Source of the DNA: Prevotella sp.
GTDB lineage: Bacteria; Bacteroidota; Bacteroidia; Bacteroidales; Bacteroidaceae
Direction: 5' to 3'
DNA length: 64,000 bases
Assembly (NCBI GenBank): GCA_017548605.1
Contig: JAFYZT010000027.1
Coordinates: forward strand, 62,001 to 126,000
Translations under genes and position numbers: made by a program
In this document: one piece after another, positions 29,035 through 47,774 of the stretch
How the letters are laid out: each line of letters starts with the position of its first letter
How positions within the stretch are numbered: position 1 is the first letter of the stretch
Notes under the pieces: model-generated
The model's database searches: none
Seen by the model: only the letters and a program-made list of their open reading frames with translations
Told to the model about the DNA's origin: nothing

Positions 29035-30357
29035 TCAGTTGAGCCCCCCCCCACCCTTTTTGGTGTTCTGCTTCATCTGGTAGTAAAGTTTGTCCTGGAG
29101 GTTGTTATTAACATCACTATACTGGTGGTAGAATGTGCGTTCGTCTATCTCGTATTCCCTGGAAAGTTGATTCCATAAGACACGTACTTTATCTCCACAT
29201 TGGTTCAGATAAGGAAGGTATAGGTTGTTATAGAGTTTTTCCGTGTGGTTATTCCAAGCGGAATCGCGCAAATGTCCCATCATCCGTTGGAAAATGGGTT
29301 CGACAACAGAACTGATCCGCTGCTTGATTTCTCCCGTGGTCATCGTTTTTGTTCTTGTCACCGTCCTACTCGCCGTTTCCGCTGCGACAGGCACGGAAGA
29401 AGGCCTGGACTGCAGCGAAGGATCAGAAGGCTCAGAAGGGGAAACCGTTGTAGCAGATACAGTTTGTGAAGAAGAGGTTGTTGAAGATGACAAGACAGTA
29501 TCGGCAGGCAACGTGTCCTTGGAAACCACCTCTTTCGAAATATGCTGCTGCACCTTGTCCTGTGTGGTGCAGGTACGTATGAAAATTACACAAAGAATGA
29601 CGGCCAACAACAGAAGGGCTGGAATGAGAATACGACGAAAGGTAAAGGAGCGGCTATGCAACTGCCGTGCAAGTTCACTGGTTGATGAGAAGCGATTGTC
29701 AGGATTCTGCGCTGTACACTTCTGAATGATGTCGCGATAGAATCGTTCACATGGTAGTACTTGCAGTATTTTTCCGATGGCATAGATATCTGTACGAGGA
29801 GTAGGTTTTTCGCCATACATATCAAATTGTTCCGGCGCGGCGTACTTATCCGTGCGTCCTGTGGTGTCGGGATAGGCATCGGTGTAGCAAAACCCCAAAT
29901 CAATCAGTTTCACCTCATGACCAATGCGCGTAAGCAGGATATTACTAGGTTTCAAGTCAAGATGGATAACTTGGTGTTCATGGAGATAGCCCACCACATC
30001 CAACAGTTGACGCAGGAAGCGGTCTGCATTGTCGCGATGTGTGAAATAATCAGGGTGGTTTTTGGTAAAAACATCCAACGTTTCGCCATCCACATAATCC
30101 ATCAAAATGGCATCGTCGGTCATAGATACGAAACGCACCAGATGAGGATGCTCGAATTGATAACCCGTCTCAAACTCTTTTTGCAGGGCCACCCGATAGC
30201 GAGGGTCGTCTCGCAGTTCTTCTTTCAGCCGTTTCAAGAAATGCAGTTTTCCATAAAGGCGTACACGGAAACAGTCGCATGTAGAGCCACCGATGGGGAG
30301 GGGTTCCGCATCGGGAAAAGAAAACTGGTGGTCGGAGAAGGAAGAGGAAAAGGACAT
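29035..30357 (-). CDS. Membrane-anchored Hanks-type serine/threonine protein kinase
   Basis: The 440-residue protein has a cytoplasmic kinase domain with the ATP-anchoring Lys in HFLKRLKEE (~Lys42), the catalytic loop HLDLKPSNILL (132-142; HLD in place of HRD), DLG for DFG (153-155), APE (174-176) and DIYAIGKILQ. One membrane helix (~242-262: RRILIPALLLLAVILCVIFI) is followed by a Ser/Thr-rich linker and a ~110-residue extracytoplasmic helical domain. All catalytic residues are present, so it is probably active. The 3' end runs through a G9 tract (C9 at 29044-29052 on the plus strand) encoding KKGGGGLN. It shares orientation with the 182-residue gene upstream. Confidence 0.88.
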   Translation of the reverse strand: MSFSSSFSDHQFSFPDAEPLPIGGSTCDCFRVRLYGKLHFLKRLKEELRDDPRYRVALQKEFETGYQFEHPHLVRFVSMTDDAILMDYVDGETLDVFTKNHPDYFTHRDNADRFLRQLLDVVGYLHEHQVIHLDLKPSNILLTRIGHEVKLIDLGFCYTDAYPDTTGRTDKYAAPEQFDMYGEKPTPRTDIYAIGKILQVLPCERFYRDIIQKCTAQNPDNRFSSTSELARQLHSRSFTFRRILIPALLLLAVILCVIFIRTCTTQDKVQQHISKEVVSKDTLPADTVLSSSTTSSSQTVSATTVSPSEPSDPSLQSRPSSVPVAAETASRTVTRTKTMTTGEIKQRISSVVEPIFQRMMGHLRDSAWNNHTEKLYNNLYLPYLNQCGDKVRVLWNQLSREYEIDERTFYHQYSDVNNNLQDKLYYQMKQNTKKGGGGLN

Positions 30358-30516: not shown

Positions 30517-31065
30517 CTAACAAAGAGTCCAGGTGATGCCCTGAGCCTTGCCGGCAGTGAAGGAGCCGAGGTCGGCATTTTCCCTGAGCACATTGGTCAC
30601 GAACAATGGATAATTGTTGACGATATGGGAGATGGACAGCATGTCACCCACAAGTAGTTTGCTGTTCTCCGCTTCAATAACACGGAAATGCCCATCACCG
30701 AGATATTCCATACATACATGACGATTAGGGAGATAAGTGATGAGCACTTGTTGTCCAACAGACAGGTCGGCCATGCGCAATTCGCCATCGATAGTGTCGA
30801 ATGAAGAGTTGCTGCCCGTGTCGAGTTGTGAGAGTGTGTCCCAGTCGCCATAGCCCAAGTAGCGAGCCACCACATCGAGGGTGGAGATACGTGGGGAACG
30901 TTCATCATCGATGCTGCCCAAGAGTCTTTTGAGTGTGTTCACTCCGATATGTTCACCCGTTTGCGATTCGATGTCGAGCGCGAGACATTGTATGTCATAA
31001 GGTGTTCGCACGTCGTGACCGCATTTTTGTTGAAGTAGTTGAATGATTTTCTTAGAAAATATCAT
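30517..31065 (-). CDS. Protein of unknown function with putative N-terminal helix-turn-helix
   Basis: I do not recognise a named family. The 182-residue protein has an N-terminal helical part (FSKKIIQLLQQKCGHDVRTP, then TLKRLLGSIDDERSPRISTL and DVVARYLGYGDWDTLSQL) reminiscent of a degenerate XRE-like DNA-binding domain. A beta-rich C-terminal part follows (VGQQVLITYLPNRHVCMEYL, FRVIEAENSKLLVGDMLSIS). It lies 160 bp upstream of the Ser/Thr kinase in the same direction and has its own promoter (31113-31144). A regulatory link to the kinase is possible but only from context. Confidence 0.6.
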   Translation of the reverse strand: MIFSKKIIQLLQQKCGHDVRTPYDIQCLALDIESQTGEHIGVNTLKRLLGSIDDERSPRISTLDVVARYLGYGDWDTLSQLDTGSNSSFDTIDGELRMADLSVGQQVLITYLPNRHVCMEYLGDGHFRVIEAENSKLLVGDMLSISHIVNNYPLFVTNVLRENADLGSFTAGKAQGITWTLC

Positions 31066-31171: not shown

Positions 31172-31747
31172 CTAATTGTATGACCGACAAACGGTGCAGA
31201 CGAAGTGAGGATAGACGGTTGTGTGGAAATGGTACTTGCCATTTCTGACTAAAGGAGAATTCAGCACTTCACGCATGTCAGAAGAAATACCCTCACTCGT
31301 CATTTTCAAAAAGCTTTCTTTCATGGTCCACAAGCGGAGGAAGGCAATGCACGGGTCGGGTGAAGAGGCTATCTGCTGCTGTTCTTCTTTATTCATAACG
31401 GCACTGACGAGTTCCTCATCGTAGCTGTCAAGACTCTCCACATCGATGCCCACGGGCGAGGAATCGACGATGCACGCCACCGCCTCACGACAATGGCTCA
31501 TATTGAAAAAGATATGTGGGTAGTCGGTAAGCAAGGGCTTGCCATGGCTGTCATAGTCGAACACCGGGGGGTCGGTGATGCCATACTCCACACTCAGTGC
31601 CCGCTGCAACAACCGGTAGGCACCCAACGAGAGTTGTTGGTCACGTTCCTGCCTGTAGCGGAGGGCATGGTCACGGCGTTGTTGGCTGACCGTGGCGAGT
31701 GCCTCATTGAGGTCAAAATCTTCTATTTGTTGGTCTATGTAAATCAC
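31172..31747 (-). CDS. 4'-phosphopantetheinyl transferase (Sfp-type)
   Basis: The 191-residue enzyme transfers 4'-phosphopantetheine from CoA to the conserved Ser of carrier proteins. Family motifs: KPLLTDYPHIFFNMSHCREA (residues ~70-89), the Mg2+-binding PVGIDVESL (~98-106) and RLWTMKESFLKMTSEGI (~138-154). Length is somewhat short for Sfp but usual for Bacteroidetes members. It overlaps the MATE gene by 4 bp and is the last gene of the NRPS locus. The obvious targets are the two PCP domains of the synthetase. Confidence 0.93.
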   Translation of the reverse strand: MIYIDQQIEDFDLNEALATVSQQRRDHALRYRQERDQQLSLGAYRLLQRALSVEYGITDPPVFDYDSHGKPLLTDYPHIFFNMSHCREAVACIVDSSPVGIDVESLDSYDEELVSAVMNKEEQQQIASSPDPCIAFLRLWTMKESFLKMTSEGISSDMREVLNSPLVRNGKYHFHTTVYPHFVCTVCRSYN

Positions 31748-33075
31748 AACTTAGATTTCTGCAGTTCGAAAGTCACATGGCTGGAACGGTGGAGAATGAA
31801 GATGGCTATCACCTCAATGAGATAGGCGATGAGGTAACTGTACCAAAGATACTGCGGCATCCACCGTGCCATGACCCACAGCACCGGGATGACGGTGAGC
31901 GACAGAGCAAAGGAGATGAACAGCGCCATGTGGTGATGATGATAGAGCTTATAGACAATCATCAACACATAGATATAGCAGAACGGGATAAAACTGAGGG
32001 CAAAGATACGCAAGGCATGGTTTCCTTCACTGATAAATGCCTGGTCGGAGGCACCAAACAACTGCACGATAGCCGTAGGCCATATCCACACGAAGAGACA
32101 GAGGGCAACCATGGCCACGGTGATGAACCGAAAGGCTTTTCGAAGTACCAGGCGCAATCCTTCACCATTACCTTTTCCCACCTGAATAGCCCCCAGCGAC
32201 TGTAATGTCTGGCAGGTACCCGAGAGGAAAAGGTTATATACCTGCAAAAGGTTCATACATACGGCAAAAGCAAAGATACCCGCTCGTCCCAGAGTTCCCA
32301 ACACGATGGTATTGGCGGAGAGCATCAACAACGTCAGGCTGATGGACGCTATGGCCAGTGGAGCCCCCTGAGAGAGAATTCTTTTCCACGATGACAACAA
32401 TCCCCGAGTAGAGAAATCAAGCGACAGACGGGAGGGCGTCTTCGGTTTCCACCAATGGCTGAGAAGGATGGCGATGCCAACGATATGTCCCACGACGGTG
32501 GCCGCCGACGAACCGGCTATTCCCCATCCGAACCACTGTATGAAGACAATGTCGAGACAGAGATTCACCGCATTGTCGATGATGACGGCCAGCGAAACCA
32601 GTTTCGGACTGCCATCCACGCCCACCATCGTCGATAAGCCCCACATGAGGATAAATGCCATATTACCCAGCAAGAGAATCTGCATATATTCCGAAGCCAA
32701 CGGCAGTATCTCCTCGTTATTGCACAGCAAACGTGCCGTCGCGCTCGGGAAAAGGATGCCCCCGAACACCGCCAGCAGCAATCCCAACCCCATACTGAGC
32801 ATGAAAGCGCGCGTGAAAAGTCGTTTGGCCTCACCGATATCGTTCTTTCCCTGCGCATAAGCCACAAGCATACCTGCTCCCGCATTGATGAGCAGTTGCA
32901 GGGTATAGATGAACTGGTTCACGGGCTTCGACAGGTTGATAGCACTCACTCCGTCGGCACTGATGAGATTGCCCACGATAATGCCATCAACCACATTTCC
33001 CAAACAACCCGAGAGGGCTACGAGGATATAAGCCCACAGGTAGTTATAGAACTGTTTGTTGAGATTCTGTTCCAT
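31744..33075 (-). CDS. MATE-family multidrug/metabolite efflux transporter
   Basis: The 443-residue membrane protein has about 12 hydrophobic segments in two similar halves. Typical MATE elements near the N-terminus include ALSGCLGNVVDGIIVGNLIS and a repeated QLLINAGAGMLVAYAQGK. The second half begins near SQGAPLAIASISLTLLMLSA. It uses H+ or Na+ gradients to export small molecules. It lies between the NRPS (345 bp upstream) and the phosphopantetheinyl transferase (4 bp overlap), so exporting the peptide product is a reasonable inference. Such transporters are otherwise common and the link is not proven. Confidence 0.9.
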   Translation of the reverse strand: MEQNLNKQFYNYLWAYILVALSGCLGNVVDGIIVGNLISADGVSAINLSKPVNQFIYTLQLLINAGAGMLVAYAQGKNDIGEAKRLFTRAFMLSMGLGLLLAVFGGILFPSATARLLCNNEEILPLASEYMQILLLGNMAFILMWGLSTMVGVDGSPKLVSLAVIIDNAVNLCLDIVFIQWFGWGIAGSSAATVVGHIVGIAILLSHWWKPKTPSRLSLDFSTRGLLSSWKRILSQGAPLAIASISLTLLMLSANTIVLGTLGRAGIFAFAVCMNLLQVYNLFLSGTCQTLQSLGAIQVGKGNGEGLRLVLRKAFRFITVAMVALCLFVWIWPTAIVQLFGASDQAFISEGNHALRIFALSFIPFCYIYVLMIVYKLYHHHHMALFISFALSLTVIPVLWVMARWMPQYLWYSYLIAYLIEVIAIFILHRSSHVTFELQKSKL

Positions 33076-33120
33076 TCGCTCTTCTCTTTTGTAGTTAAGG
33101 GGTTAAGAAGGGAGTTAAAG

Positions 33121-33197
33121 TGGAAGTTAATTCGCTTCGCTCATGGGAGTTTCTTTAATCGGGAGTTAAAATGGAAGTTAATTCGCTTCGCTCATGG
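33121..33197. repeat. 26 bp direct repeat in the NRPS-MATE spacer
   Basis: TGGAAGTTAATTCGCTTCGC followed by TCATGG occurs exactly at 33121-33146 and 33172-33197, embedded in GGAGTTAAA-type repeats. Confidence 0.85.
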
Positions 33198-33286
33198 AAG
33201 TTAAAGTGGAAGTTAAAATGGACATAACTCCGCCTACAACTTTTACCTTTTTACTCTTTTACCTTTTTACTCTTCCCTTCTATTCA

Positions 33287-33316
33287 TCTCCCCTCCCTTG
33301 GGAGGGTCAGGGTGGG
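33287..33316. repeat. C-rich dispersed palindromic element downstream of the NRPS gene
   Basis: CCCCTCCCTTGGGAGGG followed by TCAGGGTGGG. Inverted relative to the copies at 17190 and 28097. Located 105 bp after the NRPS stop on the minus strand. Confidence 0.75.
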
Positions 33317-33420
33317 TATTTTAACTTTCAAGACTATTGTCCTGCACGAAGTGCTTAACTTCCTTTTTTACTTCCTTTTATAACTTCCTTTTCTTCCTTT
33401 TTTACTTCCAAATACTCATA

Positions 33421-36400
33421 TCATTCAAAGAATCCGAAGCCACCGATGGCTGTGAGCATGCGCTCCACATAATCCCACGAGGTGGGCGACCAAGCGAATC
33501 CCAAACGATAGAGAACCTGTGTGGTATAATCGTTGTCGCGGGTCACGTCGGTCGTTTTCTGGCCATGGGCCATGTCCTTGTAGGCGAGCAAAGCAGCCAT
33601 CTGCTTGGCCTTCTGCGGGTCTTGTCCGGCCTCGTCCATTGCCTCTTGGAACTCCTCCTGCTCCACGAAGCGGATTCCACCCGTTACGGCGGTAAGGCCC
33701 GAGAGCACGTCGCCGAGGAACTGTCCATGGATATTGTAGGGATGGAACACGGTACACTCCTTCGGGGTAGTGGTCAACAGCACTATGGCATGGGCCACCT
33801 CGTTGATGGGCGAGAACTCTACTCGTTTGTTACGCATGGCATGCGGACAGCAGCCAAGCATGTTATAGATGCGGATGCGACCCATGAACGAATTGGTACT
33901 GAAGTTGGCCTGGAACTCACCATCGGTACTGCGGGCAGCGAGGTTGCCCACACGCATGATTTTCGCATTGAGGCCGTGTAAAGCAACGGCATCAAGGATG
34001 AGGCGCTCAGCCATATACTTCGAATAGATGTACTGGTTACCCAGATACTGTCCCATGTAAAGGCGCTGCTCAGTATAGATGTCATCCTTTATCTCACCAG
34101 CCCATATACCACGGGTACTGGCCGTAGAGATGTGAATGAGTTTAGCACCAGTCATTATGCAGAAATCTGCACAACGACGCGCACCACCAATGTTCACGTC
34201 CTCAATCTCCGTGCCTTCGGAGAAATGTTTCACGACAGCAGCGCAGTTATACACCGTGTCGATTTTCTTATCAGACATCAGAGCTACGAGGTCGTCGGTG
34301 ACATCACCCACCACCACATGCAGGCGTGTCCCAAACAGGCTCTTAAACGAATCGTCGAAATAATAGAAGAGAAGCGTACGCAGTCGGTTCTCCGCTTTCT
34401 CACAACTCTTTCCTCTCACCAGACAGTATATCTCCTGTGCATCGGAGTCGATGAGTTCACGCAGAATATGTATTCCCAGATAACCTGTGGAACCTGTTAT
34501 CAACACGTTGCCCAACTGTTGGCGCTCACCTGCACGGAAGAAGCCCAATGTGTTGCGCTGCAACAGATTATTGATGGCAGTGTAGTCGAAGTCGGCAACG
34601 GGATCGGGTTCACCTGACGAAGAACCGTCGGAAACGGTGGTTCCTGTGATGAGTGCCGCCAGTTTTCGTGGTGTCGGATTGGCAAAGACCTCACCATACG
34701 ACACATGGAGTCCGGCCTTGTCGGCCTCGATGATGACGCGTGTGACGACAAGCGAAGTTCCACCGAGTTCAAAGAAGTTGTCGGTAGCACCCACGCGGTC
34801 CATCTGCAGGATATTGGCAAAGATATCGCAGAAAGCACGTTCCGTGTCGTTGAGAGGAGCCTCGTAGTCACCACTGATGGCCAGCTGGGGTTCCGGCAGG
34901 GCCTTGAGGTCGGTCTTACCGTTGGGTGTCATCGGCATCTTCTCCAATTGCAGATAAGCCGTCGGCACCATGTACTGCGTGAGGCTCTTGCTTATCTCGG
35001 TCTTCATCTGAGTGATGTCGATGGGACGGTCAGCGGTGAAGTAGGCGCAGAGGTGTTCCTTTCCAGAGAGTTGACGAATCATGATGACCACGTTCTTCAC
35101 GCCCTCGACGCGGGCAATGACATTCTCCACCTCGCCAAGTTCAATGCGCAAGCCGCGCAGTTTGATTTGGTGGTCTTTGCGCCCAAGAATAAACACATCG
35201 CCATCAGACGCCCACTTGGCATAGTCGCCCGACTTGTAGACGCGTGTTCCGTGATAGTCGATGAAGCGCTCCCGGGTCATATCGTCCAAGTTGTTATAGC
35301 CCTGGCCAACACCCCGTCCGCCGATATACAACTCACCCACAACGCCCACGGGTAATTCATTGCCGTCGCTGTCAACGACAAACTCCTTGACATTGAGTTG
35401 AGGACGACCTACGGTGACACGATCGGCATGGGTCAATTCCTGGATATTCGATGACACGGTGGTTTCTGTTGGTCCATAAGTATTCAGGATGCGCGAAGGA
35501 GTACGCTGCTGCATCTGGTGAAGCAGACTCTCGGGCAGTTTCTCACCACCGAAACGGATGACAGGCACAGTACGGATGGCCTCCACGAATTCATCACTAT
35601 AAATCCATGTCTGCCACTGCGAAGGTGTTGCCGACACGTAACCAATATGGTGCTTGTGGATGAGTTCTGCCATATCAAGCGGGTTCTTGGTCTGTTCCTC
35701 ATTGGCCAACACCAGGGTGAGTCCATTGAACAGCGAGATAGCTATTTCGTGGAGCGAGGCGTCAAACGAGATGGTGGTAACACCCAGGATGCTCTCGGCA
35801 GCATTCGCCACAGCATAGGCCTCAACATTGGCTGGCAACGCCGTTGAGTAGTTACACATACCCTCATGACGCAGCATCACACCTTTAGGCCGACCTGTGG
35901 AACCACTGGTATAGATAAGATATGACAAATCATCGGGGGTAAGATTCACCTTCGGCTGCGTTATATCTTCATTCTTAAGCAGTTCTTCAGCCACCTCGGA
36001 GGTAATAATCAGTTTGGCACCACTATCCTCCAGAATCAATTTCACACGGTCGGCGGGATATTCGGGATCGCAAGGGATATAGGCAGCCCCTGCCTTCTGA
36101 ACGCCAAACATGGAGAGGATGAGCCGGCTTGTACGCGGCAACAGAAGGGCCACACGGTCGCCCTCACGAACGCCACGTTCCCTGAGAGCGTTGGCGATGC
36201 GGTTGGTAGCCTGGTCGAACTCGCGATAGGTAAACTGGGCATCGCAAGCGATGAGTGCCATACGGTCGGGCTGCGTCTGCGCATGATGAACGATACTCTC
36301 GTAGAACAGTTTGAAAGGAGCTTCACCTGTGCCGACCTGACGGATATGGCTCAACTGCTCTTCCTGAGCGGCACTGACAATAGACAACTGGCGCAATTTG

Positions 36401-39400
36401 CCATTCGGCTGGGCCATGATATGCTCCACTGTGGCGGCGATGCTCTCGGCGAGACCTTGCGCGGTTTCAGCGGTGTAAACAGCATCATCGTATTGTACCA
36501 AAATGCCACGCGACTCTATCTTGATATTGATTTTGAATTTGGGCACATTGAGTTCGAGCAATTCCTGACCAACGGGTTTGCCACCAACGGTGTATTCAGA
36601 CAACACACCCACTTGATAAGCGTAAGAGATGGCGGGATGGAAGCCGTAGTCGGCAGCGATACGTGCGAAGGGATAATTCTCGTGACGCAGTGTCTCGTCG
36701 AAGGTGTCGCTGACCTGGTGCAGGTAGTCGGCCACCGTCACATCGTCGATTTTAAGACCGAGGGCAAGGGTGTTGACGAACATTCCCACGGTATCGGCAA
36801 TCTGTAGGTTTGAGCGTCCGCTGCTGATGGTACTGATGTACACCTCACGATTGTTGGTGTAGCGAGAGATGACGTAACTGGCAGCGGCGAGGAACAGATG
36901 TGCCGGTGTTATCTCTTGCTGACGACAGAAAGCGGCAGCTTTGTCGTGATCCGTCGGACAGACAGCCTCGCCGATAAAGCCCTGTTCCTCCGTCTTGGGT
37001 AGGTCGGCAGGAATCTCACTCGCCCCTTCACAGGTCTGCAATTTCTCAGCAAAGAACTGCTGGGCATTGCAGAATTCCTCGGTAGTTTCCGCCTTCTGTT
37101 GATCTGCCACGAAATCGAGGTAATTGTATGTTTCCTTTTCTATGGTCTTTCCTTCCAACAACGAACATATCTGTCGGATGAACAAGTCGGCCGAACCGCC
37201 ATCGAACACCAGATGGTGAATATCCATCAACAGGTGAACCGCCGTTTCCGTTTTCACCACCTCAAATCGGTAAAGCGGTGCTTTCTGCAGGTTGAAGGGT
37301 TGTACAAACTCGTTCTTATATGTTTGCAGCTGTTCATCGGTCATCTCGCTGACCGCCCCACCCCGTTCTTCCTTGAAGGATAATGTGATGGCATCTTTGG
37401 TTGTCTGTACGATGGTGTCGCCCTCGGTAATGAAATGTATGCTCAGCTCCGGATGGCTTTTCACCACATTCTCCACAGCCGCTGCCAACTGCCAAGCGTC
37501 AGTACCTTGGGGGAAGGTGAGCAGATATGGAATATTATAAACTGTTGAAGTAGGATTTCTGAGACAGTCGAAATAGACACCCGTCTGAGCATACGACAAG
37601 GGAACGCTCGTTCTGCTTTCCTTTTCCTCTTGCTGTTGTTTCCCTGCCGATGAGCCAGTACCATCATTGGCAAGCATCTTTCTGATTATCTCATTTTCAA
37701 TGCTCTGCAATGTTCCACTCTTGACAAGTGACTTGGCATCGAGCGCCACATCATAGCGTTTGTTGATTAGAACAGCCAGTCGGATAGCAGAAATAGAGGT
37801 AAGCCCGGCATATCCCAATACTGTAGTAATGCCAAAATCGCTGTTGTTGACAATGCCAGCCACCAATTCGTGCAGTTCCTTCTCAAGCACATTCATGGGA
37901 ACATTTGTCTCTACGGGAGCCGCCGCTTTCTTCTCGGGCTTGGGCAATGCGCGTTTGTTCACCTTCTGGTTTTGGTTCAGCGGAATCGCCTCAATCTGCA
38001 TAGTTACAGCCGGCACCATGTAAGGCGGTTTCTGTTCGAGGATGAAATTGTTCAAAGCCTCAATATCTATCTGCTTGTCGCTCACAATATAGGCGGCGAT
38101 GAACTTGCCACCACCAGCGTTCTTTCCTTCATCGACATCGAAAGCCTGCACCGTAGCATCTTTAATGCCCGGGAACTCACGTATCACGGCCTCCACCTCC
38201 TTCAATTCGATGCGGAAACCACGAATCTTCACCTGCCCATCGCGTCGTCCCACGAACTGAATATTCCCGTCGGGCAGGAAACGGACAATGTCGCCGGTGC
38301 GGTAAACACGCACGTATTTATCAGCATTGACATCCTCAATACCAAGGAAAGGATTTTTAATATAAGCCTCATTGGTCTTTTCCGGTCTGTTCAGATAGCC
38401 CCTACTCACCTGCGGTCCTGCTACCCATAATTCACCGGCAGCACCCACAGGCTGGCGATTTCCTAACTTGTCAACCACATATAGACGCATATTGTCGAGA
38501 GCCTTACCGATGGGTATGTCCTTCATCTTCTTCTCCACGCAGTAGGTGGTGGTGAAGATGGTACACTCTGTGGGACCATAAACATTGTAGAACTTATAAC
38601 CCTTAGGCGGTGTGAGCGAAGCCAGTTTCTCTCCACCCGTGGAGAGGTATTTCAGCGAGTGATTCTCGATGGTTGTCGCGAACTGATAACCCACCTGGGT
38701 TGTCATGAAGGAGTGGGTAATACCATTCTCTTCGAAATACTCGTTCAGTGCTATAAGGTCAAGACGTATCTCCTCGGGAATAATATATACTGTTGCACCA
38801 CATGTCAATGCAGGATACATGTCCATCATACACGCATCGAAGCCATAACTGGCGTAGGCGGCCACATGATGTTCAGGGTGCAGGTCATAGAAACGCTGAT
38901 ACCAGTTGCAGAAAGCGACGAGGTTACCATGAGTGAGCTGGCATCCCTTGGGAATACCTGTGGAGCCCGATGTATAAAGGAGGATGAATAAGGCATCGGG
39001 AGAAATGGAAGAATGAAGATTGGGAATAGAAAATTTGCCGCTTACTTTTCCATCCTCTATCATTATCTCACCGTTCTCAATCAACACCTCCTCGCCCTTG
39101 TATTCGTCAACGATGGAACGCAGTTCCTCGTCGGCTATCAGCAACTTGGCATTGGCATCCTGCATCATGAAGTTCAGGCGTTCTTTGGGATAACTGGGGT
39201 CGAGAGGTTGGTAAGCACATCCTGCTTTCAGTATACCGAGTGAAGCGATAGCCATCCATTCGCATCTTGGAATGAGCACCGACACGACATCGCCTTCACC
39301 CAAGCCCTTTGCGTTGATATAGCTGGCGATACGATTGCTGATCTCATCCACTTCAGCATAAGTGTATTTCTTATCTTTATAGACAACAGCGACATTATCG

Positions 39401-40788
39401 GGTGTGGCCTTCGCCTGTTTCCCGAACAACGACACGATGGTCTGCGAGTCATCATAGTCGGAATCGGTCTGATTGAAGCCATTCAATGTCTGTATCTGCT
39501 GCGGTGTGGTGATATTTATTTCACGCAGGTATTTACTGGTCATCAAGCCCCTGACAACCGCTTCGTAACTCTCGAGGAACTGTCCCACCAACGCCTCGGA
39601 ATATTCGTTCGCGCGGAATTCGGCTTTCACCTGGTATTTACCATCACGAATGAACGCTTTCAGATACAACGGGGCATCGAGGGTGCTGTTGCCAATTCGT
39701 TCGGCCTTCATGGGTTTACCTCCCATCATATCATCGGCAAAAATGTTGGCATGCCATGCGAACATTGAGTTTGTCTGTAATTTCAGGTCTTCCATCACGT
39801 CGGCGTATGAATAGACCGAATGTTCCCTGCAACCACTCATCTGCTCCTGTCCAGCCATCAGGAAGTCATACACCTTCGTATCATCTTCGAACTTGGCATA
39901 TACGGGCAGTGTCTTCACGAACATACCCAATGTGTTGGCCAGCCGTTTGTCGCTTCGCCCGTTAAATACTGTAGTGAAAAGTGACTCCTGCTCGTTGTTG
40001 AATTTAGCCAGAAGGAAGGCGTAGGCAGACGTGAACAGTGTGCTTTTGAAGATGCCATTATCCTTGCAGAAAGCATCCACAGCGTTAGGTGCGATGTTCA
40101 ATGTGTACAAAAGGTGACCTTCGCTGACGGTCGGTTCTTCATGGTCAGGTATAAGTTGGGTGAAGAGGTCGCCACAGTCGAATGTCCGAGCATACCAGTC
40201 TTTGGCCTCGCCAAACACGGCCGACTGCCGCTCACCATCTTCTGCTGCAGCCACATCGGTCATAGAGCGTTGTTCTTTAGCCAACTCCATCCCTTGGTAA
40301 GCCTTGTCAATGTCGTTGAGCATCAGTTTCATCGACGTACCGTCGATGATAATATGATGATAATCAATGAAAAGATAAAGGCATTTGGCATCACGTAACA
40401 AACGAATGCGGAACAATCTATCACGATAAATATCGAAAGGTTCGACCAACGATGGTTTCATTGTCTCGATATCATCGATATCTTCCACATGGATAGTCCA
40501 TGGCTCGTGCTGGTCATCAACGACCTGCATGGGAACGCCATCATCATTCAATACGATGTGCGTGAAGAGAGTTGTTCTTCCATTCACAGCTGTCTCCAGC
40601 GCTTTGCACATGCGTTCCACATCGAGACCATTATCGAGTGTATACAAATAAGGCAGGTTATAACATATTTCTCCTTTACGATTGGCACATTCTGCATATA
40701 TGCCATACTGTGATTTGGTTAAAGAAACCATTTTTTTCATATCCTTTATTATATTGACGTTGCGTAAGTTATGTATTTGTATCGGCAT
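33421..40788 (-). CDS. Two-module non-ribosomal peptide synthetase with terminal reductase (C-A-PCP-C-A-PCP-R)
   Basis: The 2455-residue synthetase reads in order as follows. C1 has DYHHIIIDG (~142-150). A1 (~450-950) has LLYTSGSTGIPKG, YNVYGPTE and YRTGDIVRF. PCP1 has the modified site YAGLTSISAIRL (Ser ~1000). C2 (from ~1058) has HHLVFDG. A2 (~1490-1965) has LIYTSGSTGRPKG, NTYGPTE and YKSGDYAKW. PCP2 has FFELGGTSLVV (~2004). The NAD(P)-binding thioester reductase has TGSTGYLGIHILREL (~2099) and the YIYSKYMAER catalytic pair (~2256). There is no thioesterase or epimerase. The reductase should release the dipeptidyl thioester as aldehyde or alcohol; the starter C domain suggests N-acylation of residue 1. 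The start is probably ATG 40731 (MVSLTKSQYGIY), which has an AAGGA site at good spacing; 40740 and 40788 are alternatives. Intact and unbroken. Confidence 0.94.
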   Translation of the reverse strand: MPIQIHNLRNVNIIKDMKKMVSLTKSQYGIYAECANRKGEICYNLPYLYTLDNGLDVERMCKALETAVNGRTTLFTHIVLNDDGVPMQVVDDQHEPWTIHVEDIDDIETMKPSLVEPFDIYRDRLFRIRLLRDAKCLYLFIDYHHIIIDGTSMKLMLNDIDKAYQGMELAKEQRSMTDVAAAEDGERQSAVFGEAKDWYARTFDCGDLFTQLIPDHEEPTVSEGHLLYTLNIAPNAVDAFCKDNGIFKSTLFTSAYAFLLAKFNNEQESLFTTVFNGRSDKRLANTLGMFVKTLPVYAKFEDDTKVYDFLMAGQEQMSGCREHSVYSYADVMEDLKLQTNSMFAWHANIFADDMMGGKPMKAERIGNSTLDAPLYLKAFIRDGKYQVKAEFRANEYSEALVGQFLESYEAVVRGLMTSKYLREINITTPQQIQTLNGFNQTDSDYDDSQTIVSLFGKQAKATPDNVAVVYKDKKYTYAEVDEISNRIASYINAKGLGEGDVVSVLIPRCEWMAIASLGILKAGCAYQPLDPSYPKERLNFMMQDANAKLLIADEELRSIVDEYKGEEVLIENGEIMIEDGKVSGKFSIPNLHSSISPDALFILLYTSGSTGIPKGCQLTHGNLVAFCNWYQRFYDLHPEHHVAAYASYGFDACMMDMYPALTCGATVYIIPEEIRLDLIALNEYFEENGITHSFMTTQVGYQFATTIENHSLKYLSTGGEKLASLTPPKGYKFYNVYGPTECTIFTTTYCVEKKMKDIPIGKALDNMRLYVVDKLGNRQPVGAAGELWVAGPQVSRGYLNRPEKTNEAYIKNPFLGIEDVNADKYVRVYRTGDIVRFLPDGNIQFVGRRDGQVKIRGFRIELKEVEAVIREFPGIKDATVQAFDVDEGKNAGGGKFIAAYIVSDKQIDIEALNNFILEQKPPYMVPAVTMQIEAIPLNQNQKVNKRALPKPEKKAAAPVETNVPMNVLEKELHELVAGIVNNSDFGITTVLGYAGLTSISAIRLAVLINKRYDVALDAKSLVKSGTLQSIENEIIRKMLANDGTGSSAGKQQQEEKESRTSVPLSYAQTGVYFDCLRNPTSTVYNIPYLLTFPQGTDAWQLAAAVENVVKSHPELSIHFITEGDTIVQTTKDAITLSFKEERGGAVSEMTDEQLQTYKNEFVQPFNLQKAPLYRFEVVKTETAVHLLMDIHHLVFDGGSADLFIRQICSLLEGKTIEKETYNYLDFVADQQKAETTEEFCNAQQFFAEKLQTCEGASEIPADLPKTEEQGFIGEAVCPTDHDKAAAFCRQQEITPAHLFLAAASYVISRYTNNREVYISTISSGRSNLQIADTVGMFVNTLALGLKIDDVTVADYLHQVSDTFDETLRHENYPFARIAADYGFHPAISYAYQVGVLSEYTVGGKPVGQELLELNVPKFKINIKIESRGILVQYDDAVYTAETAQGLAESIAATVEHIMAQPNGKLRQLSIVSAAQEEQLSHIRQVGTGEAPFKLFYESIVHHAQTQPDRMALIACDAQFTYREFDQATNRIANALRERGVREGDRVALLLPRTSRLILSMFGVQKAGAAYIPCDPEYPADRVKLILEDSGAKLIITSEVAEELLKNEDITQPKVNLTPDDLSYLIYTSGSTGRPKGVMLRHEGMCNYSTALPANVEAYAVANAAESILGVTTISFDASLHEIAISLFNGLTLVLANEEQTKNPLDMAELIHKHHIGYVSATPSQWQTWIYSDEFVEAIRTVPVIRFGGEKLPESLLHQMQQRTPSRILNTYGPTETTVSSNIQELTHADRVTVGRPQLNVKEFVVDSDGNELPVGVVGELYIGGRGVGQGYNNLDDMTRERFIDYHGTRVYKSGDYAKWASDGDVFILGRKDHQIKLRGLRIELGEVENVIARVEGVKNVVIMIRQLSGKEHLCAYFTADRPIDITQMKTEISKSLTQYMVPTAYLQLEKMPMTPNGKTDLKALPEPQLAISGDYEAPLNDTERAFCDIFANILQMDRVGATDNFFELGGTSLVVTRVIIEADKAGLHVSYGEVFANPTPRKLAALITGTTVSDGSSSGEPDPVADFDYTAINNLLQRNTLGFFRAGERQQLGNVLITGSTGYLGIHILRELIDSDAQEIYCLVRGKSCEKAENRLRTLLFYYFDDSFKSLFGTRLHVVVGDVTDDLVALMSDKKIDTVYNCAAVVKHFSEGTEIEDVNIGGARRCADFCIMTGAKLIHISTASTRGIWAGEIKDDIYTEQRLYMGQYLGNQYIYSKYMAERLILDAVALHGLNAKIMRVGNLAARSTDGEFQANFSTNSFMGRIRIYNMLGCCPHAMRNKRVEFSPINEVAHAIVLLTTTPKECTVFHPYNIHGQFLGDVLSGLTAVTGGIRFVEQEEFQEAMDEAGQDPQKAKQMAALLAYKDMAHGQKTTDVTRDNDYTTQVLYRLGFAWSPTSWDYVERMLTAIGGFGFFE

Positions 40789-40800
40789 AAAATGGGGAAG

Positions 40801-42132
40801 TTACCATTTTGTTGAGAAGATACGGGGAGAGATGATGAGCGAGAACCATCCCCACCTCAGGCTCTCATTATGGTCTGCTCGTTTTAGTTTCTCCATCGTT
40901 TCCGTTCCCGTCATGTATGAGAAGCCTGCAGATAATTTCACATCATCCATTATCTGGTATGCCGCCTCAATGTCGATGTCATGTCCGAGTGTCATGTCGG
41001 TATCTTCCAGTTTTGTGGCGATTGCCATATAGTGGTATTTTGTTCTCAGAGTCAGACGGTCTATCGGTTTGTATTCTGCTCCGACATATACTTGTTGGAG
41101 TCCTGGTGTAAACCCGTCGAAATAGGTCTGCACATAGAAGTAATCCATCAAGCCATAAAACCGGTGGTGAGAGCCATAGACCGGGTTGAAGCCCTTGATT
41201 ACCTTGTGCTGCGTGTAACCTATCATCCCCTGAGCGGGCACGGCAAAGTACTTGTCACCGCTTAAGTAATCGTAGCCTGTTACCACGGCAAGCTGTCTGT
41301 TCAGTTGCTTACGGGCATAGAGACTGGCCATCCACGCGTCGATTTTTATGCCATCTTCGTTTTTACCCATCTGGTGGTAATACGAGGCCTCCACCTTCAG
41401 GTCCTTCGGGGCATAGCACACATAGGCACCCAACAACTGCTGGTATTCGGTACGTGGTGCTTTGTCACCTTCACCATCTTTCTCGCCCGCCTGCATACCG
41501 ATATTCATAAAGAGTAGCGAAGCGCCCAGCGGCATCTTGGGCAAATCGTAGTGATACCACAGCGTGTGCATGGTCTTATAAGCCTGTCCGCCATTCGTAT
41601 AATAAGTACCTCCGTAGGTGTTTTCTACATTCTGGTTAAAGGCCAATATGGCATGAGCCTTATGCCCGTGACCTTCATAGCCGAACCTGAAAACATCGTG
41701 AGTGAGCGATGCCATGGCCCAATCGTTGGTGCCGATGATACGTTCATCGTCATAAGCCAAGGCTTGCCGTCCTATCTGTGCGAACAGCCCGTTTTTCATA
41801 CTCAGTTTGGCCCATGCCTCATTGAGGTTGAAATTACCCTTTCCACTCTGGCCCCACACCCCATTATGCTGAGCAGTTACCTTGGTTTCCAATCCAGTAC
41901 GTTTGTAGTTCAGCGTGAGCCTTGTACGCTCCATGAGGAAATAGGCGTTTTCTTTGCTTTTCGTCTCTTCATTTGCCGGGTCAGATGCTTCAAGTCCTCC
42001 TAAGCGCATCTCCCCGTGACCAAGCATCTGCAAACTCACATCCAGTTGGTTGTCACCCTCTTGCTGTGCCATCGCAGGCATGGCGGCTAGCAACAACGAT
42101 AGGCATCCAATCGTTTTCCTTATATGTGTCAT
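40801..42132 (-). CDS. Outer-membrane porin (alginate-export-like beta-barrel)
   Basis: The 443-residue protein has a signal peptide (TIGCLSLLLAAMPAMAQQ) and an alternating aromatic, beta-strand-rich body. Landmarks include RTRLTLNYKRTGLETKVTAQ, the family-like VWGQSGKGNFNLNEAWAKLS, IGRQALAYDDERIIGTNDWA and a C-terminal strand ending SPRIFSTKW. This matches alginate-export-type porins of Bacteroidetes. It lies 12 bp upstream of the longest NRPS frame (about 70 bp before the preferred start) and 44 bp after the STAS gene, so it is likely co-transcribed with both. A role in product release across the outer membrane is plausible; nutrient uptake is the alternative. Confidence 0.8.
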   Translation of the reverse strand: MTHIRKTIGCLSLLLAAMPAMAQQEGDNQLDVSLQMLGHGEMRLGGLEASDPANEETKSKENAYFLMERTRLTLNYKRTGLETKVTAQHNGVWGQSGKGNFNLNEAWAKLSMKNGLFAQIGRQALAYDDERIIGTNDWAMASLTHDVFRFGYEGHGHKAHAILAFNQNVENTYGGTYYTNGGQAYKTMHTLWYHYDLPKMPLGASLLFMNIGMQAGEKDGEGDKAPRTEYQQLLGAYVCYAPKDLKVEASYYHQMGKNEDGIKIDAWMASLYARKQLNRQLAVVTGYDYLSGDKYFAVPAQGMIGYTQHKVIKGFNPVYGSHHRFYGLMDYFYVQTYFDGFTPGLQQVYVGAEYKPIDRLTLRTKYHYMAIATKLEDTDMTLGHDIDIEAAYQIMDDVKLSAGFSYMTGTETMEKLKRADHNESLRWGWFSLIISPRIFSTKW

Positions 42133-42175: not shown

Positions 42176-42478
42176 TTATTCGAATTCGAAGAGATTGACG
42201 AAGCCTGTGAGTTTGAACACGCTCATGATGTCTTCGTTCACATTCTGAAGCACCACCTTGCTTCCGCTGGCCTTGGCTCCTTTGAGAATGCTGATAAGAA
42301 TACGCAATCCGCTCGATGCAATGTAGTCCAAATGTGTGCAGTCGATGAACACATCTTTACCATTGCTGTTGTAGAGTTCTTGCAATTTCTTTTCCACTTC
42401 TGCGGCGGCCGAGGTGTCGAGTTCACCTTCCAATGTCACCACATATTTGTCTTCCATTTTTTGAATCGTTGTTTTCAT
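42176..42478 (-). CDS. STAS-domain anti-sigma-factor antagonist
   Basis: The 100-residue single-domain STAS protein has VTLEGELDTSAAAEVEKKL, then FIDCTHLDYIASSGLRILIS with the phosphorylatable Ser at ~55/56, and KVVLQNVNEDIMSVFKLTGF. In partner-switching systems such proteins are phosphorylated by an RsbW/SpoIIAB-type kinase and dephosphorylated by a PP2C/SpoIIE phosphatase. Both activities are predicted in the single protein encoded 47 bp upstream. No sigma factor of the sigma-B type is nearby, and Bacteroidetes generally lack one, so the target it competes for is unknown. Confidence 0.93.
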   Translation of the reverse strand: MKTTIQKMEDKYVVTLEGELDTSAAAEVEKKLQELYNSNGKDVFIDCTHLDYIASSGLRILISILKGAKASGSKVVLQNVNEDIMSVFKLTGFVNLFEFE

Positions 42479-42525: not shown

Positions 42526-44784
42526 TTAGGATTGAGGGCTGGAATAATCCTTACGCATGGTAAGAACGTTTTTCCCATTTGTGCGCTCGTAGTTGATAGA
42601 GTCCATCAATTCGCGGACGAGGAAAATGCCCAGTCCTCCTACTGGTCTTTCTTCAGCTGTCAGCGTAGTGTCAGCGGTGGCAGCCTCTGTGGGATTAAAA
42701 GCTATGCCTGCATCGGAGATGATGAATTTCAATCGTTTTCCATTGGATGTTACCCTTATATCGATATTGCCAGAAGTACCCCGAGGATAAGCATACTCCA
42801 TCACGTTGACAACCGCTTCTTCCAAAGCGAGTTTGAGTTGATAGGTCAGCGGCTTTGATATATTCAGCCGTTGGGCGATATCCGAAATGAACGTGTTCAG
42901 CGTAGCTACCTGTTTCACATCGTTCTGCAGGACAAGCGTCTCATCAAGCAGATTCTGGTCGGCAACAGGAGCATAGCACAGCGCAAGGAGTGTCAGGTCG
43001 TCGCCCTGCTCAGCCGATTCCGCAAAGGTATTCTGCTTCTGAACCATATACTCTACCAAAGACTTAGAATCTATGGTGTCACAACCGGCCAGTGCGGACA
43101 TCATCCTCTTCGTGCCATATTGTTCGTTCCCCGGATTCCTCCCTTCCGTCAGCCCATCAGTGTAGAGGAAGAGTGCTGAACCACCCTGAAGGGTAATCTC
43201 CTGCATCTCATACTTGAAATCGTCGAACAGTCCGATGGGCAAGTTGGGCTTGGCATCAATGAAACGGCAGTCCATGATTGCATCCCTCTGGGGCTTTTCC
43301 TTCTTCCTGACGATGACAGGCAATTCATGGCCTGCATTGCAGTAACGCAGACGACCGGTAGGCAGGTCGAGCACACCCACGAACATCGTCACGAATATGT
43401 TCTCTCTATTGTTGCGGCAAGCCGTTTCATTGAGTTGTGTCATGATATGCGCAGGGTTGTTCTCCCTGGAGGCGATACTTCTGAACAGCGTTTTTATCAC
43501 AGCCATGATGAGTGCTGAGGGCACTCCTTTGCCGCTGACATCACCGATGCAGAAAAACAGTTTATCATCGCGCATGAAAGCGTTGTACAAATCGCCGCCC
43601 ACTTCCTTTGCCGGGATGAGCACACCCCACACGTTGAGGTCCTTCGTCTTTGCCAGTGAGGGATCTTCGATATTTATCATCGATTGTTGTATGCTACTGG
43701 CAATGCGCAACTCGCTGCCCATACGTTCCTGTTCGATGTTCTTTTTGTTGAGTTGACGTTCTTTACGGGCGAAGTTACCTATCATGAAAAGCAGTATGCC
43801 GATAGCCGACAACATGAGCAGACCAATATAGACACGTAGCTTGTTGAGTGCACCATACACTTCGTCGTCATGACACACCACAACAATCTGCCAACGTGGT
43901 TTTCCTTTCATGTTAGCATAGAACACCGTACCTTTCTGTCCATCATATTTGAAGCGCAACTTCTTGCTTCGGCCACTACGACTGAATTGGCGTTCCACCG
44001 TGCTGTCGTTGATGAGGTTGGCAATATAACTCGACGTCTTTTTACTGACCCGTTCTTCCGACGGTTCAATAATGGTCTTTCCGCTTTCGGTAAGCAGCAA
44101 ATTGAATGAAGAAGGATAGACATGTCTTTTCTCTATGGTATCCCTCAGCCATTCCAATGACACATCGATACCCACCACACCGGCCAAGGAGTCCTTTGCA
44201 TCGCATACTTTCATCACGTATGAGGTGATAATGGTCTGTGCACCCTCATTGTCAACATAGGGATCAACCCAGTGTGCCTTGCCTGATGTGATGATTTCTT
44301 TGTAGAAATCGTACTTTGTATAGTCATGATGGGCGCCGGCGATTTGGCTCATCACGATGCTGTCTTCATCAGCCACCCTCGCATAAGGCTCGTATAGTTT
44401 TCCCTTTTCCGGATAATAGTATGGATGAAACGCCATGAACCCGCCACACACATAACGGTTCTTCTCCACGAGACGTCGTACTGCGTGGTTCATTGAATCA
44501 GGATATGAGAGGCTACGCCGTATATCCCAAATATGGTTCTCGAGGATGTCCTCGGCCGAGTTGAGGGCACCTCGGGTAAGGATGGCTTTCATGGTGAGTT
44601 CGCTTTCCGCCCTTTTCTCCAGTTGCTCTTCCAACAAATCATAGGTGCTGTAGTGTTGAACTACAGAAACCAATTCGATGAGAAGAGCTGCCGTGATGAT
44701 AATCAGCAGTTCCTTCCTTTTCTTAAGCGAAGAGAAAAACTTTTTCAAATGAGTCATGAGTGTATGTAGTGTTATCTGCCTCAT
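42526..44784 (-). CDS. Sensor fusion: dCache-like periplasmic domain, SpoIIE/PP2C phosphatase and RsbW-like kinase
   Basis: This 752-residue protein has a membrane helix (residues ~24-41), a ~270-residue periplasmic sensor with Cache-like features (WVDPYVDNEGAQTIITSYVM, LAGVVGIDVSLEWLRDTIE) and a second helix (~315-335). A PP2C/SpoIIE phosphatase domain follows (KEVGGDLYNAF, LFFCIGDVSGKGVPSALIMA, LFLYTDGLTEGRN, QGDDLTLLAL), then a C-terminal HATPase of the RsbW/SpoIIAB type (LKLALEEAVVNVMEYAYP N-box, ISDAGIAFNP, GGLGIFLVRELMD). Metal- and ATP-binding residues look intact. Both opposing activities in one chain, next to a STAS gene, form a self-contained partner switch. The start at 44784 has AGGAG just upstream; ATG 44757 is an alternative. 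Confidence 0.9.
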   Translation of the reverse strand: MRQITLHTLMTHLKKFFSSLKKRKELLIIITAALLIELVSVVQHYSTYDLLEEQLEKRAESELTMKAILTRGALNSAEDILENHIWDIRRSLSYPDSMNHAVRRLVEKNRYVCGGFMAFHPYYYPEKGKLYEPYARVADEDSIVMSQIAGAHHDYTKYDFYKEIITSGKAHWVDPYVDNEGAQTIITSYVMKVCDAKDSLAGVVGIDVSLEWLRDTIEKRHVYPSSFNLLLTESGKTIIEPSEERVSKKTSSYIANLINDSTVERQFSRSGRSKKLRFKYDGQKGTVFYANMKGKPRWQIVVVCHDDEVYGALNKLRVYIGLLMLSAIGILLFMIGNFARKERQLNKKNIEQERMGSELRIASSIQQSMINIEDPSLAKTKDLNVWGVLIPAKEVGGDLYNAFMRDDKLFFCIGDVSGKGVPSALIMAVIKTLFRSIASRENNPAHIMTQLNETACRNNRENIFVTMFVGVLDLPTGRLRYCNAGHELPVIVRKKEKPQRDAIMDCRFIDAKPNLPIGLFDDFKYEMQEITLQGGSALFLYTDGLTEGRNPGNEQYGTKRMMSALAGCDTIDSKSLVEYMVQKQNTFAESAEQGDDLTLLALCYAPVADQNLLDETLVLQNDVKQVATLNTFISDIAQRLNISKPLTYQLKLALEEAVVNVMEYAYPRGTSGNIDIRVTSNGKRLKFIISDAGIAFNPTEAATADTTLTAEERPVGGLGIFLVRELMDSINYERTNGKNVLTMRKDYSSPQS

Positions 44785-46290: not shown

Positions 46291-46322
46291 TTTGGCCTTT
46301 TGTAGTAAAATAGGTATTTTTG
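46291..46322 (+). promoter_or_regulatory. Promoter of the TolC/ABC efflux operon
   Basis: TTTG (46291-46294), 20 bp spacer, TATTTTTG (46315-46322): an excellent consensus match. The predicted start near 46329 lies downstream of the ATG at 46292, which rules that ATG out as the tolC start. Confidence 0.72.
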
Positions 46323-46345
46323 CGATGATTTTCCAATATATTACT

Positions 46346-47689: not shown

Positions 47690-47730
47690 GGGGCAAGGAG
47701 CAAGGAGCAAGAGGCAGGGAGCATGGAGCA

Positions 47731-47760
47731 AGATAACGAAATAACGTGATAACGAAAAAA
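47731..47760. repeat. GATAACG-type repeat spacer between tolC and the fusion-protein gene
   Basis: GATAACGAAATAACGTGATAACG fits the pattern of three spaced GATAACG/ATAACG units. Related spacers lie at 49731-49765 and, as a terminator, at 52798-52840. Confidence 0.7.
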
Positions 47761-47774
47761 ATCAAACTCAAAAT

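What the first reader, a model, noticed from the sequence alone, without database searches (positions are those of the whole stretch)
33421..40788. Two-module NRPS ending in a thioester reductase: a predicted peptide aldehyde or cyclic imine pathway
Seen: C-A-PCP-C-A-PCP-R with all catalytic motifs intact and no thioesterase. Known: reductase-terminated dimodular NRPSs release dipeptide aldehydes that can be protease inhibitors or cyclise to imines/pyrazinones, and such products are reported from gut bacteria, mostly Clostridia. Inferred: because the first module begins with a C domain and nothing lies upstream, the amine of residue 1 is probably acylated, which would block pyrazinone formation and leave a free aldehyde or alcohol. 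NRPSs are rare in Prevotella-like genomes.
Basis: partly seen in the sequence, partly recalled or inferred. Interest (0 to 1): 0.8.

Follow-up and report, generated by a model that had tools for sequence, protein, structure and literature searches.

The report
Rumen Prevotella lipopeptide-aldehyde synthetase operon
A Prevotella-type gut bacterium carries an assembly-line enzyme predicted to make small, probably fatty-acylated, two-residue peptide aldehydes (likely protease inhibitors), in an operon with a signalling switch, an outer-membrane protein, an exporter and an activating enzyme; relatives occur in many ruminant-associated genomes, and the part that sets the reactive end residue has been swapped among them.

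Summary
Window 33421-40788 (-) encodes a C-A-T-C-A-T-R synthetase with no thioesterase and intact catalytic motifs; T1 has GLTS, not GGxS. No ORF of this 92%-complete genome outside its two NRPS genes showed both an adenylating and a carrier domain, so an acyl-capped dipeptide aldehyde is likely. C1's subtype stayed open: C1 lies outside my LCL and DCL references, but so does C2. NRPSs are not rare here: 65 of 200 genus genomes matched.

(1) A conserved operon: Cache-PP2C-kinase fusion, STAS, outer-membrane barrel, NRPS, MATE, PPTase. Among orthologs with enough flank, STAS was present in 36 of 37 and MATE in 34 of 41. (2) The A2 pocket has Arg at one position in 49 of 51 orthologs and the other two have Lys elsewhere; my guess is an acidic aldehyde residue. 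(3) Module 2 has been swapped between relatives, with aliphatic-type or basic-type codes in others.

The kind is known (ruminopeptin-like, AusA-like); lineage, operon and module-2 shuffling are the variant. The product is untested.

The parts
42526..44784 (-). Cache sensor - PP2C (SpoIIE) phosphatase - HATPase (RsbW-like kinase) fusion, 752 aa; putative switch of the operon
   Evidence: Pfam SpoIIE 9.4e-51, HATPase_c_2 6.5e-28, PDC/Cache; metal Asp and N-box/G-box residues at least 95% conserved in 61 homologs; upstream of 34 of 37 orthologous NRPSs with enough flank, window included
42176..42478 (-). STAS-domain protein, 100 aa, putative phosphorylated partner of the fusion
   Evidence: Pfam STAS 4.6e-17; SSGLR at least 95% conserved in 42 homologs; upstream of 36 of 37
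40801..42132 (-). outer-membrane beta-barrel protein (Alginate_exp-like), 443 aa
   Evidence: Pfam Alginate_exp 6.3e-09; upstream of 31 of 37
33421..40788 (-). NRPS, C1-A1-T1-C2-A2-T2-R; probable start ATG at 40740
39469..40737 (-). C1 condensation domain, putative acyl-starter (subtype not settled)
   Evidence: HHIIIDG; own clade 100/100, but joined with C2 outside the references
37924..39468 (-). A1 adenylation domain, hand-read code DAMFSGVIFK (aliphatic, inferred)
   Evidence: code starts DAMF in 51 of 51 orthologs
36349..37611 (-). C2 condensation domain
   Evidence: HHLVFDG; tree
34894..36348 (-). A2 adenylation domain, hand-read code DAHSRGTVSK (acidic residue, inferred)
   Evidence: exchanged among relatives
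33421..34584 (-). terminal thioester reductase domain
   Evidence: NAD_binding_4 1.1e-36; 6vtj 1.7e-67, AusA R 4f6c 3.9e-32
31744..33075 (-). MATE efflux transporter
   Evidence: Pfam MatE 7.4e-26; within 4 kb downstream of 34 of 41 orthologous NRPSs
31172..31747 (-). 4'-phosphopantetheinyl transferase, overlaps the MATE gene by 4 nt
   Evidence: Pfam ACPS 7.1e-14; best NCBIfam AusB, 86 bits, below cut-off; within 4 kb downstream of 12 of 41

Best explanation
The locus is a six-gene operon that makes, regulates and exports a small acyl-dipeptide aldehyde. The PPTase arms T1 and T2 (inferred). C1 joins an acyl group from acyl-CoA or acyl-ACP to an aliphatic residue loaded by A1 (inferred). C2 couples this to the residue loaded by A2, probably acidic (Glu- or Asp-like; weak inference). 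R releases the chain with NAD(P)H as an aldehyde (established for R domains of this kind; an alcohol is not excluded). The MATE transporter and the outer-membrane barrel would carry it out (inferred). The Cache-PP2C-kinase fusion with its STAS partner would switch production in response to an external signal (inferred from domains and conserved linkage). A reversible inhibitor of competitors' or host proteases is the likeliest use. Relatives keep module 1 and exchange module 2, which would retarget the aldehyde residue to other protease classes.
For: Domains and motifs. Reductase related to 6vtj and the AusA R domain. Linkage among orthologs with enough flank, window included: SpoIIE 34 of 37, STAS 36 of 37, OMP 31 of 37 upstream on the same strand within 6.5 kb; MATE 34 of 41, PPTase 12 of 41 downstream within 4 kb; gene order varies while membership is kept (L035, L038, L052, L079, L087). 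The own genome has only two SpoIIE and two STAS genes, one pair here. No ORF outside the two NRPS genes has both A and T. No upstream NRPS ending in T: of 53 loci examined, 7 had NRPS-like hits upstream, 5 of them synthetases with an R hit at the end and 2 weak adenylating-enzyme hits (L042 beside a MenC-like gene, L041 unidentified). A2 Arg in 49 of 51 orthologs; the two exceptions have Lys at another pocket position. Module swap: L103 versus L073, C1 89, A1 86, T1 81 but C2 47, A2 32%. Precedent: N-octanoyl-Met-Phe-H, and ruminopeptin as N-acylated Leu-Glu aldehyde (PMC8518294, passages; PMC12327764, passages).
Against: C1's starter type is not shown: C2 falls outside the LCL references just as C1 does, and C1's best PDB profile hits are not the domains I recall as starters. 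On contig C32 of the own genome a stand-alone adenylating-enzyme hit (152271-152846) lies beside a stand-alone carrier (153262-153408), so loading in trans is not excluded. The A-domain codes match no code I can recall and were placed with a recalled GrsA register. SpoIIE plus STAS occurred in 15 of 15 stretches that I picked because their contigs had no NRPS match, 5 of 15 with OMP, so switch and barrel may serve something else. PPTase was found in only 12 of 41. Transcription and product are untested.
Confidence: 0.55

Rival explanations
1. C1 does not acylate; the free-amine dipeptide aldehyde is released and cyclises to a dihydropyrazinone or pyrazinone, as with aureusimine.
For: Closest named family is AusA, 1157 bits but under the cut-off of 2500, and AusB for the PPTase, 86 bits under 225.
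Against: C1 is present with its motif conserved: second His in 51 of 51 orthologs, first in 50 of 51. AusA's domain order A-T-C-A-T-R is recalled; the best stretch aligns our residues 19-1034 (module 1) with profile positions 993-1990. C1 varies fastest (57% mean identity) yet keeps its motif.
Confidence: 0.17
2. R carries out a four-electron reduction, or another enzyme reduces the aldehyde, and the product is an N-acyl dipeptide alcohol.
For: R domains of both kinds, and separate aldo-keto reductases, are known (PMC8949500, passages). A short-chain dehydrogenase gene recurs in the flanks of 5 loci (L031, L053, L063, L073, L089).
Against: That dehydrogenase lies thousands of bases away (minus strand in 4 of the 5) and is not among the genes of the operon; among the 25 largest neighbour clusters printed I recognised no aldo-keto reductase, but most were not annotated. 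The R domain resembles AusA's.
Confidence: 0.2
3. C1 is an elongation domain fed by another carrier, so the product is a longer peptide.
For: C1's best PDB profile hits are TycC and BacC condensation domains. Stand-alone carriers and adenylating enzymes exist in the genome, one such pair adjacent on C32.
Against: No ORF with A and T together outside the two NRPS genes; no upstream NRPS ending in T in 53 loci examined.
Confidence: 0.12
4. The SpoIIE, STAS and OMP genes are a conserved neighbourhood that does not act on the NRPS.
For: SpoIIE and STAS in 15 of 15 picked stretches on contigs without an NRPS match, with OMP in 5 (L106, L113, L114, L115, L116). SpoIIE-like fusions match in 120 of 200 genus genomes.
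Against: 34 of 37 and 36 of 37 linkage on one strand; shuffled orders with membership kept; only two such pairs in the own genome.
Confidence: 0.3

Closest known systems
Ruminopeptin (rup) and other gut N-acyl dipeptide aldehyde NRPSs such as BGC0001686
   Same: NRPS-made dipeptide aldehyde, N-acylated; [quoted passage not shown]
   Different: The passages name Clostridium and Ruminococcus as sources, not Bacteroidota. I had neither sequence, so homology and domain order were not compared.
AusA/AusB aureusimine system (NF047350, NF047349)
   Same: R-terminated NRPS with its own PPTase; R domain related.
   Different: Scores far below both family cut-offs; this synthetase begins with a C domain (AusA order recalled); AusAB makes pyrazinones.
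PCP-R structure 6vtj/6vtz (archaeal NRPS)
   Same: Closest solved reductase, 1.7e-67 over all 387 query residues.
   Different: That 6vtj is the archaeal didomain is recalled; only the title of its paper was seen, in a reference list. The rest of that synthetase was not compared.
SpoIIE/RsbW/STAS partner-switching modules
   Same: PP2C, kinase and STAS parts with conserved key residues.
   Different: Phosphatase and kinase are fused behind a Cache sensor and sit beside an NRPS; an output partner such as a sigma factor was not sought.

Membership tests
Reductase-terminated NRPS | C, A, T modules ending in R with Ser/Thr-Tyr-Lys, no TE | tested here: met
AusA aureusimine synthetase (NF047350) | score above curated cut-off of 2500 bits | tested here: not met
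   1157.3 bits
AusB PPTase (NF047349) | score above curated cut-off of 225 bits | tested here: not met
   86.3 bits
N-acyl dipeptide aldehyde synthetases (rup type) | starter C domain that accepts an acyl donor | tested here: inconclusive
   C1 outside LCL, DCL and E references, but so is C2, and no proven acyl-starter among them; PDB profile ranks favour other domains
N-acyl dipeptide aldehyde synthetases (rup type) | sequence homology to rup or BGC0001686 | not tested
   sequences not at hand; the pyrazinone paper was not held, the rup paper was not looked up
N-acyl dipeptide aldehyde synthetases (rup type) | aldehyde product | not testable with these tools
   needs an enzyme assay
Partner-switching module | PP2C phosphatase, HATPase kinase and phosphorylatable STAS protein | tested here: met
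   domains and conserved residues only
Partner-switching module | output target (such as a sigma factor) bound by kinase or STAS | not tested
   no candidate sought

The most novel reading that the evidence does not exclude
A ruminant-gut family of Bacteroidota acyl-dipeptide aldehydes in which nature keeps the acyl-aliphatic half fixed and swaps the module that sets the aldehyde residue (acidic, aliphatic or basic), giving inhibitors tuned to different protease classes, with synthesis and secretion under a Cache-sensing partner switch.
Probability: 0.3. Interest if true: 0.75.

Novelty: new variant of a known kind. Interest (0 to 1): 0.5.

Why it matters
Peptide aldehydes are potent protease inhibitors, and the gut producers named in the passages I read are Firmicutes. 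A widespread ruminant Prevotella family would put such inhibitors into protein breakdown in the rumen, where differences in feed efficiency have been linked to expressed Prevotella gene clusters including NRPSs (PMC8241843, passages). The natural module-2 swaps are a ready-made experiment in NRPS recombination. The linked Cache-PP2C-kinase and STAS genes give a testable route from signal to metabolite.

Tried and rejected
Considered and dropped as cluster members: the kinase gene at 29035-30357, the 182 aa gene at 30517-31065, the HTH gene at 28632, the genes at 27210 and 21391, and those at 45312 and 46292; with tblastn at E 1e-6 and over half covered, each was found in the window only. The genes beyond 46292 were not put through that test. 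PDB searches to type C1 were inconclusive; TycC tops the C2 list as well.

For the C-domain tree I used plasmid NRPSs as references and named their subtypes by position and neighbouring domains; no proven fatty-acyl starter was among them, Rhiz_8 and IHBpks_2015 are long branches of unsure place, and C2 lies outside the LCL references just as C1 does, so the tree does not mark C1 as a starter. My first neighbour count (SpoIIE 30 of 34, STAS 32 of 34, OMP 28 of 34, MATE 30 of 36, PPTase 11 of 36) left out L024, L025, L066 and L075, whose rows had been dropped as duplicates, and took the second synthetase of L054 for its ortholog; one search replaces it for the orthologs. Both use only L024-L103 and the window; loci with too little flank, and split genes without a full-length row (L044, L069, L095), are not counted. 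For the more distant relatives one search gave SpoIIE 9, STAS 13, OMP 5 of 19 and MATE 4, PPTase 0 of 16.

The 78 aligned full-length rows came from 108 ORFs (those of loci L005-L103 and the window) after dropping lengths outside 2351-2619 (83 left) and rows with identical last 600 residues; 51 count as orthologs by more than 60% identity to the window, 27 do not. Paper searches on rumen peptide aldehydes, Prevotella reductase NRPSs, acylated dipeptide aldehydes in the gut and SpoIIE/STAS partner switching in Bacteroidetes (no paper) showed no description of this system; I saw listings and some passages only, and most subscription papers are not held, so this is weak evidence of novelty.

Full report
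The observation. The reverse strand of the window carries one long gene at 33421-40788. Pfam finds Condensation, AMP-binding and PP-binding twice each and a terminal NAD_binding_4 reductase; no thioesterase is among the families listed. Catalytic motifs are present. T1 carries GLTS in place of GGxS, with the Ser conserved in 51 of 51 orthologs; the R-domain Tyr and Lys are also 51 of 51. The ATG at 40740, behind AAGGA, is a better start than the one at 40788: the eight best full-length matches in other genus genomes begin at query residues 12-18.

Where it lives. The named relatives are mostly Prevotella, Prevotellaceae or Bacteroidales MAGs; by my count of the titles, 56 of 80 loci bear ruminant-type names (36 RUG numbers and 20 with an animal or rumen named). 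RUG as rumen uncultured genome is recalled; the other 24 titles do not state a host. In the genus draw 65 of 200 genomes match at E<=1e-80, which includes more distant NRPSs. In the family draw 34 of 301 match at E<=1e-200, the own genome included; in the phylum draw 3 of 395, one of them the own genome and the other two partial at 31-32% identity (few genomes of the own family were in that draw). So NRPSs are not rare in this genus, and full-length relatives were seen only in its family. A rumen survey reports 5,346 NRPS clusters, 934 of them in Bacteroidaceae (PMC8241843, passages).

The operon. Searching the loci with the window's neighbours shows which genes recur: the SpoIIE fusion, STAS, outer-membrane protein, MATE and PPTase do; seven other neighbours tested do not. 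Among orthologs with enough flank, window included, upstream on the same strand within 6.5 kb: SpoIIE 34 of 37, STAS 36 of 37, OMP 31 of 37; downstream within 4 kb: MATE 34 of 41, PPTase 12 of 41. Among the more distant relatives the figures are lower: 9, 13 and 5 of 19, and 4 and 0 of 16. Some relatives have the same genes in another order (L035, L038, L052, L079, L087), which argues for selection on linkage rather than mere descent. Against a strict bond, SpoIIE with STAS was found in 15 of 15 stretches that I picked because their contigs had no NRPS match, 5 of them with OMP, and SpoIIE-like fusions match in 120 of 200 genus genomes at E<=1e-40. The own genome has just two SpoIIE and two STAS genes, paired at two places, one of them here. 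Key residues of phosphatase and kinase (61 rows), STAS (42) and PPTase (16) are conserved in at least 95% of the homologs clustered. I infer a partner switch with an external sensor; its output is unknown.

What module 1 does. The own genome (92% complete) shows 8 carrier matches: three in the two NRPS genes and five in stand-alone frames of 80-92 aa. None of the 11 adenylating-enzyme matches outside the NRPS genes lies in an ORF with a carrier; but one on C32 lies beside a stand-alone carrier, so loading in trans is not excluded. Of 53 loci examined, 7 have NRPS-like hits upstream: five synthetases with an R hit at their end, and weak adenylating hits in L041 and L042, the latter beside a MenC-like gene. 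No upstream synthetase ending in T was seen. In L040, L054 and L085 a gene starts just after or at the end of the NRPS gene that looks like an adenylating enzyme (Pfam AMP-binding 22.7 bits, under the cut-off, in L040; no Pfam hit in L054; the L085 protein was not scanned); it could activate an acyl group, a lead only. In a tree of 73 C-type domains C1 is one clade (100/100) and pairs weakly (82/44) with the first C of one-module C-A-T-R synthetases. C1, these and C2 form one clade (100/99) outside the LCL, DCL and E references. Since C2 is an elongation domain by position, this does not mark C1 as a starter, and no proven acyl-starter was included. The PDB profile ranking puts TycC and BacC first for C1; TycC is also first for C2. 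C1 is the least conserved domain among orthologs, 57% mean identity against 67-84% for the others, which could mean varied acyl groups (inference).

What module 2 does. Codes read by a GrsA register from memory: A1 DAMFSGVIFK, A2 DAHSRGTVSK. A1 begins DAMF in 51 of 51 orthologs. A2 is DAQSRGCVAK in 40, DAHSRGTVSK in 9 and DMKNMGTVSK in 2; the Arg is thus in 49 of 51, and the two exceptions have Lys at the 239 position. I read this as a positive charge kept for an acidic side chain, with modest confidence (about 0.5). Among the 27 other full-length rows, 21 have an A1-like aliphatic-type A2, 3 have DAEGTGVDDK with three acidic residues (basic substrate, inferred), and 3 have other codes (the three basic-type ones checked by motif anchors). 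L101 has a three-module synthetase whose codes are a DVEFSA type that I cannot assign, the Arg type and the basic type, in that order.

Swapping. L103 and L073 are 89, 86 and 81% identical in C1, A1 and T1 but 47 and 32% in C2 and A2, then 69 and 73% in T2 and R. In L073, L067 and L089 the A2 is 74-75% identical to the same protein's A1; in L091 65%, and in L054_b, L008 and L018 33-37%. Within orthologs, A2 is 89-93% identical to the window's in L042, L037, L026, L039 and L057, although C1 is only 50-67%; in L029 and L086 C1 is 67% but A2 68-69%. The aldehyde-residue module has moved independently of the acyl module.

Comparison with the known. The best family hit is AusA, below cut-off. The reductase resembles 6vtj and the AusA R domain. 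[quoted passage not shown] I did not read the primary papers; the pyrazinone paper was not held. The kind is therefore known; host lineage, operon and module shuffling make the variant.

Verdict. The likeliest product is an acyl-aliphatic-acidic dipeptide aldehyde, exported and switch-controlled. Chemistry and regulation are inferred.

Noticed in passing
G000:C19:85027-89109 (L104:7028-11110, +): A second NRPS in the same genome, one module C-A-T-R (1360 aa; Pfam), with an A-domain code read as DAECCGTVNK (basic substrate, inferred); no SpoIIE or STAS hit in the 18 kb stretch.
   Followed up: partly
G000:C36:252246-253515: The only other SpoIIE and STAS pair found in the genome, a possible paralogous switch.
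   Followed up: no
window 33076-33420: The gap between NRPS and MATE genes holds two near-identical 42-nt repeats (95%, spacing 51) and pyrimidine-rich repeats.
   Followed up: no
L040:14612-15964, L054:8375-9988, L085:17319-18671: An adenylating-enzyme-like gene directly after the NRPS in three relatives (68-77% identical to each other's L040 copy; weak Pfam AMP-binding in L040); perhaps an acyl-activating enzyme of the pathway.
   Followed up: partly
L101:9989-20480: Three-module C-A-T x3 -R synthetase (3497 aa frame) beside a two-module one.
   Followed up: partly
L054, L060, L067: Two R-terminated dimodular synthetases near each other on one strand with different A2 codes.
   Followed up: partly
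L088:17393-20569: A 1058 aa gene with AMP-binding, PP-binding, a weak Condensation match and a Thioesterase domain follows the R-terminated synthetase.
   Followed up: no
genus genomes: Many Prevotella-group genomes carry several PP2C-HATPase fusions that match only from about residue 340 on, so with other sensor parts: an apparent family of switches whose output I do not know.
   Followed up: no
window 46292-48950 (+): Outer membrane efflux protein (OEP) and HlyD-type membrane fusion protein genes run divergently from the operon.
   Followed up: no
window 21391-27213 (-): 1940 aa protein with GLUG repeats, Big_2 and a dockerin-like domain.
   Followed up: no
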